This document shows positions 46,271 to 49,936 of a stretch of DNA of 64,000 nt, piece after piece. The notes beneath the pieces were generated by a model, which worked only from the letters and a program-made list of their open reading frames with translations, was not told where the DNA came from and made no database searches. Positions within the stretch are counted from its first letter, which is position 1. Every line of letters starts with the position of its first letter. Location of the stretch: NCBI RefSeq assembly GCF_014898075.1, contig NZ_CP062976.1:1488001-1552000 (forward strand), read 5' to 3'. A program made the translations under genes and the position numbers. This stretch comes from Neisseria yangbaofengii (GTDB lineage: Bacteria; Pseudomonadota; Gammaproteobacteria; Burkholderiales; Neisseriaceae).

Positions 46271-48844
46271 TTATTCAAATGCCAAACGGTCGCCGTCGGC
46301 GGTTACGTTAATCACGCTCTCCGGTGCATAGCGGCCGGACAACAAGGCTTTGGCCAGCGGATTCTCAATCTCGGCTTGAATAGCACGTTTTAAAGGTCGT
46401 GCGCCATACACCGGATCGAAGCCTGCTTGCGCGATGATGTCCAACGCTGCATCAGACACGCGCAAATGCAAGTCTTGCGCTGCCAAGCGTTTTTCCAAAC
46501 CGCGTAACTGGATTTTGGCAATGCTGCGGATGTGCTCCTGCGCCAAGCCGTGGAACACGACCACTTCGTCAATGCGGTTAATCAGTTCGGGGCGGAAATG
46601 CTCTTTCACGTCTTCCATCACCACTTCTTTGAGTGCGTCGTAATCGGCGGTACCCATTTGCTGGATATGCTGGCTGCCGATGTTGGAAGTCATCACCACT
46701 ACGGTGTTTTTGAAATCCACTGTGCGGCCTTGTCCGTCGGTCAGGCGACCATCGTCCAACACTTGCAGCAAGATATTGAACACATCGGGGTGGGCTTTTT
46801 CTACTTCGTCGAGCAGAATCACGCTGTACGGTTTGCGACGTACTTGCTCGGTGAGGTAGCCGCCTTCTTCGTAGCCGACATAGCCCGGAGGCGCACCGAT
46901 TAAGCGGGCGATGCTGTGTTTTTCCATATATTCCGACATATCAATGCGGATTAAATGGTCTTCGTTGTCAAACAGGAAGCCTGCCAGCGTTTTGCACAAT
47001 TCGGTTTTGCCCACGCCGGTCGGACCTAAAAACAGGAAGCTGCCGTAAGGTTTGTCCGGGTCTGCCAAACCGCTGCGGCTGCGGCGGATGGCATCGGCAA
47101 CGGCACGCACGGCTTCGTCTTGGCCGACTACGCGCTGATGCAATACTTCTTCCATTTTCAGCAGTTTTTCACGTTCGCCTTCCATCATTTTCGCCACCGG
47201 AATGCCTGTCATACGGGACACGATTTCGGCCACTTCGTCTGCACCGACTTCGGTTCGGAACAGTGTGTTGGCTTTTTTGCCCTGCTGGCTGCTTTCCGCT
47301 GCCTGAAGCTGCGCACTCAGTTTCGGTAATTCGCCGTATTCCAGTTCGGACGCTTTGGCATAATCGCCGCTGCGTTTGGCCTGCTCGATTTTCACTTTCA
47401 AATCATCGATTTGTTTTTTAATATCCGCCGAACTGGAAGACGCTGCTTTTTCGGCTTTCCAGATTTCGTCCAAATCGGCATATTCTTTTTGCAGGGTATC
47501 GATTTCGCTGTCGATCAATTCCAAACGTTTTTTGCTGGCATCGTCGTTTTCTTTTTCGACGTGCATTTTTTCCATTTTCAGCTGGATGATGCGGCGGTCG
47601 AGTTTATCCATCTGTTCCGGTTTGGAATCCAGTTCCATCTTGATGCGGCTAGCGGCTTCATCAATCAAATCAATCGCTTTATCGGGCAAGAAACGGTCGG
47701 TAATGTAGCGGTCGCTCAATTCAGCAGCGGCAACGATGGCGGGGTCGGTAATGTCGATGCCGTGGTGGATTTCGTAGCGTTCCTGCAAGCCGCGCAAAAT
47801 GGCAACGGTGTCTTCCACACTCGGCTCGCCCACCAATACTTTTTGGAAACGGCGCTCCAGTGCGGCATCTTTTTCGATGTATTGGCGGTATTCGTCCAAA
47901 GTGGTGGCACCGATACAGTGCAGCTCGCCCCGTGCCAGTGCAGGTTTCAGCATATTGCCGGCATCCATTGCACCGTCGGTTTTGCCCGCACCAACCAAAG
48001 TGTGTATTTCATCGATGAAAATCAGCGTGTTGCCGTCGTCTTTTGCCAAATCGTTCAACACGGCTTTCAAGCGTTCTTCAAATTCACCACGGTATTTCGC
48101 ACCGGCAATCAATGCCGCCAAATCCAGCACCAACAAGCGTTTGTTGCGCAGGCTTTCCGGCACTTCGCCATTAACAATCCGTTGCGCCAAACCTTCCACA
48201 ATCGCCGTTTTGCCCACACCCGGTTCGCCAATCAATACCGGATTGTTTTTGGTGCGGCGTTGCAATACCTGAATTGCCCGACGGATTTCGTCATCACGCC
48301 CAATCACCGGGTCGAGTTTGCCGTCTCTGGCACGTTGGGTTAAATCCAAAGTATATTTTTTCAGTGCTTCACGTTGGTCTTCTGCATTGGCATTGTCCAC
48401 AGTCTGCCCTCCTCTGATGCTGTCAATCGCTGCATTGATATTCTGTTCGGTTGCGCCGGCCTCTTTCAACAATTTGCCGGCGGTATCGTTTTGCTGAACC
48501 AGTGCCAATAAAAACAATTCGCTGGCAATATACGCATCGCCGCGCTTCATTGCGGCTTTGTCCATCAGATTTAACACTGCCTGCAATTCACGGCTCGGCA
48601 AAATCTCACCGCCGTTGCCCGATACTTTCGGAAAACCGTTTAACAAGGCTTGTAATGCCGTCTTTACCTGCGCTACGTTCACACCGGCATGCGCCAGCAA
48701 AGCCGACGCACCGCTGTTTTGATCGTCTAATAATGCTTTTAAAACATGGCCCGCCTCCAAATAGCCGTTGTCTGCGGCCAAGGCCAAGCTTTGACCTTCC
48801 TGCAGCGCTTGTTGGAATTTTGCGGTAAGTTTATCGAATCTCAT
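46271..48844 (-). CDS. clpB: ATP-dependent disaggregase ClpB
   Basis: An 857-aa AAA+ chaperone that resolves protein aggregates with DnaK. It has two ATPase domains, with Walker A sequences GEPGVGKT (about 205) and GPTGVGKTE (about 605), and the coiled-coil M domain between them ([24 protein letters not shown] and flanks). The N-terminal domain begins [23 protein letters not shown]. It stands alone with a DUS hairpin after it. Confidence 0.97.
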
Positions 48845-48998: not shown

Positions 48999-49028
48999 AA
49001 GGCCGTCTGAAAACATTTCAGACGGCAT
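48999..49028 (-). terminator. mixed AG/AT-DUS hairpin
   Basis: An AG-DUS faces an AT-DUS complement (TTCAGACGGCAT) that abuts the stop of the small membrane gene. Confidence 0.7.
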
Positions 49029-49285
49029 CATTTGAAAAATCTGTTGAACAGGAAAACAAGAAAAATGGCTTCGATAAACATAAGTGAAAAATAAGTACCG
49101 TCAGGCCACGAAGGATATTTGTCCATGATTCGGAATATCATCTGCTGATGAAACATAAATAAAATCCAGCCTGAAAGCCAGAAAACCACTTTAGCCAATT
49201 TATTCTTTGCGCAATGGTTGGCATAGCCGAGACTAAGCATAAAAGCCGTCGCAAGAGTTGCCAAAAGAATCAGATCATTTTTCAT
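49028..49285 (-). CDS. small hydrophobic membrane protein
   Basis: An 85-aa protein with about three membrane segments (LILLATLATAFMLSLGYA; VVFWLSGWILFMFHQQMIF; YFSLMFIEAIFLVFLF). No family was recognised. It lies downstream of the bacteriocin-like locus on the same strand but is separated by a terminator, so a role as an additional immunity protein is only possible. Confidence 0.55.
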   Translation of the reverse strand: MKNDLILLATLATAFMLSLGYANHCAKNKLAKVVFWLSGWILFMFHQQMIFRIMDKYPSWPDGTYFSLMFIEAIFLVFLFNRFFK

Positions 49286-49451: not shown

Positions 49452-49659
49452 CTAATGATGGATGGTCGGAATCAAAGCCGAATAGCCGACAGCTATTGAC
49501 ACTGCTGTTTGTGCAGCAAATATCAATACCGGTTTTTTTGCTGATCCGTTTCACTACAATCCGGTAAAAGATACAGACACACAAACCCACTCCGCCCAAC
49601 GGCATAATTTGCAGCACGCTCAGGCGGATAGACAAGGCTTGATACAGCATATCTGACAT
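49452..49659 (-). pseudogene. small membrane protein, immunity-like, frameshifted at A7
   Basis: The gene starts 43 bases after the bacteriocin-like stop. Read as A6 rather than A7 at 49533-49539, it encodes 68 aa with two membrane segments and a stop at 49452, directly before the terminator. As written, the frame shifts and runs through the terminator to 49303 (118 aa), losing the second membrane segment. Small membrane proteins next to bacteriocin genes are commonly immunity proteins; that role is inferred. Confidence 0.62.
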
Positions 49660-49702
49660 GCTCTGCTTTCTACTAGTTTGACAAAGATGTATTTACTGCT
49701 CC

Positions 49703-49936
49703 TCAGACTACCCCAGCAGCAATCGCAGAAACTCCTGACGCAATACCTCTCACGGAGCTAAACAGACCACCAGCAGCTCCGCCAATCACAGCATTGCGAA
49801 ATCCATCCGGGCTTTTTCCATCACCGGCCAAATACCCATAACCGCCTGCATAGCCGCCCAATACAGCACCAAGTGCAAAAGGCACCTAACCGCCGCTTAC
49901 CCCTTCCAGTTCATTCTGATTCAGTTCTTTAATCAT
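49703..49936 (-). pseudogene. class II bacteriocin precursor with amber codon after double-glycine leader
   Basis: The ATG at 49934-49936 begins MIKELNQNELEGVSGG, a textbook double-glycine leader (EL, GG). The very next codon is TAG (49886-49888). The following 60 codons give a Gly/Ala-rich core (VPFALGAVLGGYAGGYGYLA...) ending AAGVV and TGA. Class II bacteriocins are cut after GG and exported by a peptidase-containing ABC transporter, so a stop exactly at the cut site removes the core. The core ORF alone could start at GTG 49885 without a leader. A GG leader, glycine-zipper core and immunity-like neighbour support the identification. Confidence 0.75.

What the first reader, a model, noticed from the sequence alone, without database searches (positions are those of the whole stretch)
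49703..49936. Double-glycine bacteriocin precursor whose core is cut off by an amber codon at the processing site
The 16-residue leader MIKELNQNELEGVSGG is followed at once by TAG, and the same frame then encodes a 60-residue Gly/Ala-rich core. The stop sits precisely where the ABC-transporter peptidase would cleave. It could be a simple inactivating mutation, or the leader and core could be produced separately by stop read-through or by starting at the adjacent GTG. Placement at the exact junction is striking, and most annotation pipelines would miss the gene.
Basis: partly seen in the sequence, partly recalled or inferred. Interest (0 to 1): 0.78.

Follow-up and report, generated by a model that had tools for sequence, protein, structure and literature searches.

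The report
Decayed Neisseria bacteriocin precursor gene
The sequence holds a broken copy of a small bacteriocin-type gene that is intact in other Neisseria genomes, and the stop codon at the leader/core boundary looks like one of several ordinary decay mutations rather than a special way of making the peptide.

Summary
In detail: on the minus strand, leader MIKELNQNELEGVSGG (49936-49889) is followed at once by TAG (49888-49886), then by 60 open codons ending in TGA (49705-49703). The unusual readings are not supported; this is most likely a pseudogene. Six intact relatives were found in 83 genomes of the family, among them a paralogue in the same genome and, in Neisseria weixii, a copy at the same site upstream of trpS. 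All six have one and the same sense codon where the window has TAG. The window copy has more lesions: the TGA cuts off a C-terminus still recognisable in frame, and the downstream small hydrophobic ORF, a candidate immunity gene, changes frame at an A-run. None of the 62 tRNA matches in the genome has an amber anticodon. The exact placement has a mundane cause: in the six intact relatives the first core codon is the only core codon that one transition turns into a stop. Sister genes show reciprocal loss between this genome (amber) and N. weixii (ochre). What remains of interest is a scattered, fast-decaying family of orphan precursors.

The parts
49889..49936 (-). Intact double-glycine leader MIKELNQNELEGVSGG
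   Evidence: aligned apart. The ribosome-binding stretch upstream looks weaker than in the intact relatives (by eye).
49886..49888 (-). Premature TAG at the first core codon
   Evidence: the 6 intact relatives all have one and the same sense codon here
49706..49885 (-). Core remnant, 60 codons in the leader's frame, Gly/Ala-rich
   Evidence: 70% identical to relative L002/L017; pN/pS 0.29
49703..49705 (-). Second premature stop, TGA, 62nd codon of the core
   Evidence: relative L017 has 12 more residues from this place on, and the window frame beyond still resembles it
49676..49702 (-). Remnant of the core's C-terminus beyond the TGA (9 codons); next in-frame stop 49675-49673
   Evidence: GAVNTSLSN against GGVNTYLLNRN, by eye
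49540..49659 (-). 5' part of the candidate immunity gene (small hydrophobic protein)
   Evidence: 48% identity to the 69-aa ORF next to L017, E 3.5e-6; 21 of 42 identical
49455..49541 (-). 3' part of the same candidate immunity gene in another frame; an A7 run (49533-49539) lies at the change of frame
   Evidence: global-alignment score with the L017 ORF tail reached by 0 of 5000 shuffles; BLASTP gave no alignment of this piece
49028..49285 (-). 85-aa hydrophobic ORF, possibly part of the same islet; weak holin-like match below cut-off
   Evidence: Phage_holin_2, 17.7 bits against a cut-off of 32

Best explanation
A dead copy of an orphan double-glycine precursor gene and of its candidate immunity gene, in the clpB-trpS intergenic region of a Neisseria chromosome. 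Shown: homology to intact relatives, an intact relative at the same site in N. weixii, two in-frame stops in the precursor, a change of frame in the downstream small hydrophobic ORF, and intact C39-peptidase ABC transporters with HlyD-type partners elsewhere in the genome. Inferred: intact precursors of this kind are exported and cut after Gly-Gly in trans by those distant transporters and act as bacteriocin-like peptides, with immunity from the small hydrophobic protein; in the window copy ribosomes stop after the leader, so that only a 16-residue leader could be made and no exported core. The order of the lesions is not known.
For: 6 of 6 intact relatives have the same sense codon at the place of the TAG. 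Second nonsense codon. Frame change in the neighbour. At the trpS site, within 1.5 kb, 3 of 30 loci examined (45 of 46 genus genomes matched the trpS probe, 30 loci were held) carry the family at tblastn E <= 1e-5: the window copy, an intact one in N. weixii and an internally deleted remnant in G026. Another remnant in the own genome, L026. No anticodon CTA in 62 of 62 tRNA matches typed. TAG ends 4 of 53 non-overlapping window ORFs of at least 120 aa (ORFs not curated). Reciprocal loss in a sister family between this genome and N. weixii, with different stops. In 6 of 6 intact relatives the first core codon is the only core codon that a transition turns into a stop; it takes 5-8% of all nonsense routes without transition bias and 17-23% at a transition weight of 4.
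Against: pN/pS of 0.29 shows that most of the divergence from L017 arose under constraint, so the decay is recent. The leader is untouched. Three of the four premature in-frame stops seen in cores of this family and its sister family lie within the first nine core codons (window +1, L009 +9, L114 +4; the fourth is window +62), where 6-32% of the core's nonsense routes lie; few cases, noticed after the fact. The intact N. weixii copy at the same site is not the closest in sequence (47% against 65% for L017 of G025), so strict orthology is not shown. Reads could not be inspected, and one genome per species was searched.
Confidence: 0.93

Rival explanations
1. Programmed amber read-through: a fraction of ribosomes decode the TAG and make the precursor, so that the peptide is rationed.
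For: The core kept constraint for most of its history; a paralogue in the same genome, L009, also has a single in-frame TAG in an otherwise full-length frame.
Against: A stop at these places was found in no relative of either gene; a sister gene in N. weixii (L114) is broken by TAA instead; no amber-reading tRNA among 62, though near-cognate read-through is not excluded by that; a read-through product would still meet the TGA and the neighbour gene is broken too.
Confidence: 0.02
2. Leader and core are made separately; the core starts at the GTG after the stop.
For: A GTG follows the TAG directly; restart near a stop is possible in bacteria (established knowledge).
Against: The second core codon is a Val codon in 6 of 6 intact relatives, so the GTG is no special feature; a core without leader would not be a substrate for a C39 transporter (established knowledge); the TGA truncates it.
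Confidence: 0.02
3. Sequencing error in the assembly.
For: The frame change lies at a homopolymer, a common error site in long-read assemblies (established knowledge).
Against: Two separate nonsense codons and the frame change within about 480 bases; genome in one contig rated 100% complete; related remnants elsewhere.
Confidence: 0.03

Closest known systems
Putative bacteriocin/pheromone double-glycine polypeptides of N. meningitidis 8013 (PMC2784325, passages seen)
   Same: Small Gly-rich polypeptides with a double-glycine leader, with a C39-peptidase transporter and an adaptor, in Neisseria
   Different: The window copy lies far from the transporters and is broken. Sequence relation to those peptides was not tested.
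Naps of the gonococcal nap island (PMC11798529; abstract, the section on identification, and the discussion seen)
   Same: Neisseria GG-motif peptides with a candidate immunity protein and a holin-like membrane protein; homopolymer-length variation leaves napC off in most isolates
   Different: Mature Naps have 16-36 residues and are cationic; the window gene has a Gly/Ala-rich core of 60-70 codons broken by stop codons, not by a tract in the precursor. Sequence relation was not tested.
McbC/McbI of Moraxella catarrhalis (PMC2761928, passages seen)
   Same: GG-leader bacteriocin followed directly by a very short immunity gene
   Different: Intact, tested, next to its transporter genes; here precursor and candidate immunity gene are broken and far from transporters
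Pfam PF10439 Bacteriocin_IIc and NCBIfam TIGR03949 (lactobin A/cerein 7B)
   Same: Leader and Gly-rich core of intact relatives match weakly
   Different: All members of the window's own family that were scored lie below the curated cut-offs; a member of the sister family, L114 of N. weixii, is above the PF10439 cut-off (27.8 bits)

Membership tests
   E 5.8e-27, columns 2-85 of 93, with 1 TAG and 1 TGA inside
   6 of 6 intact relatives, 51-69 aa; the window has one of L017's kind, with a change of frame
Class II bacteriocins (PF10439, TIGR03949) | Score above the curated cut-off | tested here: not met
   PF10439: window 17.7 bits, own paralogue 17.1-17.4 bits, cut-off 27.1; TIGR03949: 20.6 and 17.5 bits for two intact relatives, cut-off 21.5; core piece alone: no bacteriocin family
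Class II bacteriocins (PF10439, TIGR03949) | C39-peptidase ABC transporter available in the genome | tested here: met
   two intact transporters with HlyD-type partners, 0.73 and 0.77 Mb from the gene
Class II bacteriocins (PF10439, TIGR03949) | Antibacterial activity with cognate immunity | not testable with these tools
   no activity data for any member of this family seen here
Programmed stop-codon read-through genes | Stop codon conserved among relatives | tested here: not met
   none of the 11 other places has a stop at this codon
Programmed stop-codon read-through genes | Dedicated tRNA that reads TAG | tested here: not met
   0 of 62 tRNA matches with anticodon CTA; near-cognate read-through is not excluded

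The most novel reading that the evidence does not exclude
The stops are not plain decay: these orphan precursors are repeatedly silenced just after the leader while the leader stays intact, because the free leader peptide itself does something, for example occupying the C39 peptidase of the distant transporters, or because a silent core is kept as a recombination donor for other copies in a naturally transformable genus. Three of the four premature in-frame stops seen in cores of the two sister families lie in the first nine core codons.
Probability: 0.04. Interest if true: 0.55.

Novelty: new member of a known kind. Interest (0 to 1): 0.15.

Why it matters
Mainly as a caution: a stop at a functional boundary can look designed, yet here it falls on the core codon most prone to nonsense mutation. 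The family itself, orphan double-glycine precursors far from the transporters, found between core genes and lost repeatedly in different ways, is a small record of turnover of competition genes in Neisseria.

Tried and rejected
Family libraries on the core piece and the two downstream ORFs gave nothing above cut-off. A DNA search of 60 genomes (own included) matched only the own genome and G025, the latter in two places: the relative L002 and an unrelated GG-leader gene, L003. The scan of named genomes confirmed two loci, both in N. weixii. The 85-aa ORF at 49028-49285 was compared with a similar-looking ORF near L025 in G001: no relation shown (BLASTP E 0.32). The 3' piece of the candidate immunity gene gave no BLASTP alignment and needed a global alignment with shuffles. 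In one search weak tblastn hits (E 0.005 to 0.70, at most 46 residues) also appeared in seven further trpS loci; five of these lie on the trpS side away from the site and the two on the upstream side have E 0.68 and 0.70; they were set aside without inspecting the alignments. Two matches first listed with stops inside turned out not to be cases: L119 has its TAA at the end of an intact frame, and L140 is a chance match inside another gene. Several PF10439 matches lie in frames of 475-747 aa and are probably no bacteriocins. An amber-suppressor tRNA was looked for and not found. Literature listings only, papers not opened: premature stops in double-glycine bacteriocin genes, 3 papers; N. weixii, 3 papers; Neisseria class II bacteriocin and commensal, 15 of 42 listed. 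Script 28 stopped on an assertion after seven of its eight rows; the parts that did not run were done, except the eighth row's nonsense count, which was left out.

Full report
What is there. On the minus strand, 49936-49889 encodes MIKELNQNELEGVSGG, TAG follows at 49888-49886, and the same frame is open for 60 codons to a TGA at 49705-49703. The window is C1:1488001-1552000 of a 2.65-Mb genome in one contig. The neighbours clpB (46271-48844, minus) and trpS (from 50263, plus) are named from recall of their sequences, not from a search.

Relatives. A profile of two intact relatives searched 83 genomes of the family and matched 7, in 12 places. Six places are intact precursors: L015 (own genome; the gene also fetched as L013), L016 and L023 (N. 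weixii), L017 (also fetched as L002) and L022 (G025), and L018 (G001). The other six are the window copy; L025 (G001, frame ends after 61 codons and similarity goes on in another frame); L020 (G026, internal deletion); L026 (own genome, a precursor piece run into what looks like the tail of the candidate immunity gene); L021 (G022, only leader and first residues alike); and L019 (G106, another genus, different N-terminus). At the place of the TAG all six intact copies and L025, L021 and L019 have one and the same aromatic residue; the two remnants L020 and L026 have another residue, also sense. None of these 11 has a stop there.

More lesions. Beyond the TGA the window frame still resembles L017 for nine codons, so the TGA looks premature and the 60-residue core is not complete. 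Each of the six intact precursors is followed at once by a small hydrophobic ORF of 51-69 aa, a plausible immunity gene by position. The window has one of L017's kind: 21 of 42 residues identical at its start (E 3.5e-6). Past an A7 run the similarity continues in another frame (score reached by 0 of 5000 shuffles; BLASTP did not align this piece). N. weixii has an orphan ORF of the same kind about 1.2 kb from its intact copy at the trpS site, also split over two frames.

Site. Of 46 genus genomes 45 matched the trpS probe, and 30 loci with 1.5 kb upstream were held. Three of the 30 carry this family there at tblastn E <= 1e-5: the window (broken), N. weixii (intact) and G026 (deletion remnant). 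In G001 an intact copy lies directly upstream of an ORF that begins like the window's clpB. The N. weixii copy at the site is not the closest in sequence (47% against 65% for L017 of G025), so the site may have received different members.

Why the stop sits at the junction. In the six intact relatives the first core codon is the only core codon that a single transition turns into a stop, and there are two ways to do so. It accounts for 5-8% of all nonsense routes without transition bias and 17-23% with a transition weight of four. A stop exactly there needs no special cause.

Read-through. All 62 tRNA-family matches of the genome were typed; none has anticodon CTA. TAG ends 4 of 53 window ORFs of at least 120 aa, among them one of 437 aa. 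A paralogue in the same genome, L009, has a single amber at the ninth core codon; its closest N. weixii counterpart by sequence, L122, is intact. Conversely the intact own gene L011 corresponds by sequence (83%) to N. weixii L114, which has an ochre at the fourth core codon and a shifted end; synteny of these pairs was not tested. In the genus-wide PF10439 search 4 of 33 matches contain stops: two TAG, both in this genome, one TAA (L114) and one TGA, the last being a chance match in another gene. This is reciprocal, non-conserved loss, not a conserved amber.

How the intact members probably work (inference). Two C39-peptidase ABC transporters with full domain sets, each beside an HlyD-type adaptor, lie 0.73 and 0.77 Mb away, one downstream of seven GG-leader ORFs. 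The orphan precursors share that leader type, so export and cleavage in trans is the simplest reading. The family scores below the curated cut-offs of the class II bacteriocin models and no activity is known to me, so the word bacteriocin is by resemblance.

Timing. The core's pN/pS against L017 is 0.29; the other five window comparisons give 0.45-0.54, and the 15 intact pairs 0.10-0.54 (synonymous sites are near saturation in most pairs). The gene was under constraint for most of its history and died late.

What does not fit perfectly. Three of the four premature in-frame stops found in cores of the two sister families lie in the first nine core codons, where 6-32% of core nonsense routes lie. 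The number is small and the pattern was noticed after the fact; it is the basis of the novel case, which I rate at 4%.

Literature. Double-glycine peptides with C39 transporters in Neisseria are in print (PMC2784325, passages). The gonococcal Naps show that many alleles of such genes are off and that one such peptide can lyse red blood cells (PMC11798529; abstract, identification section and discussion). For that reason this report does not say which change would restore the frames.

Noticed in passing
L009 1504-1755 (G000:C1:602951-603202 +): Another GG-leader paralogue with one in-frame TAG at the ninth core codon; the closest N. weixii counterpart, L122, is intact.
   Followed up: yes
L114 (G015:C1:621676-621900 -), N. 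weixii: Counterpart by sequence of the own intact gene L011, broken by a TAA at the fourth core codon and with a shifted end.
   Followed up: partly
L019 about 1381-1840 (G106, another genus of the family): A homologous WVANAVGG core preceded not by a GG leader but by what looks by eye like a Sec signal peptide region: the same core with another export route?
   Followed up: no
L026 (G000:C1:2445460-2445537 +): Second dead copy in the own genome: start of the core run into what resembles the tail of the candidate immunity protein.
   Followed up: partly
L127 4089-9791 (G000:C1:2300088-2305790): Seven GG-leader ORFs upstream of an HlyD and C39-ABC transporter pair; one 63-aa peptide occurs twice with one residue changed, with a transposase-like ORF between.
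   Followed up: partly
L003 (G025:C1:529521-532597): Five GG-leader ORFs in one 3-kb stretch of G025, three with a near-identical leader but different short cores.
   Followed up: no
L006 (G000:C1:382823-383191 +): C39 peptidase match in an open frame of 224 aa, without an ABC part, reminiscent of NapP of the nap island as described in PMC11798529.
   Followed up: no
window 49028-49285, minus strand: 85-aa hydrophobic ORF, holin-like below cut-off, between the broken islet and clpB.
   Followed up: partly
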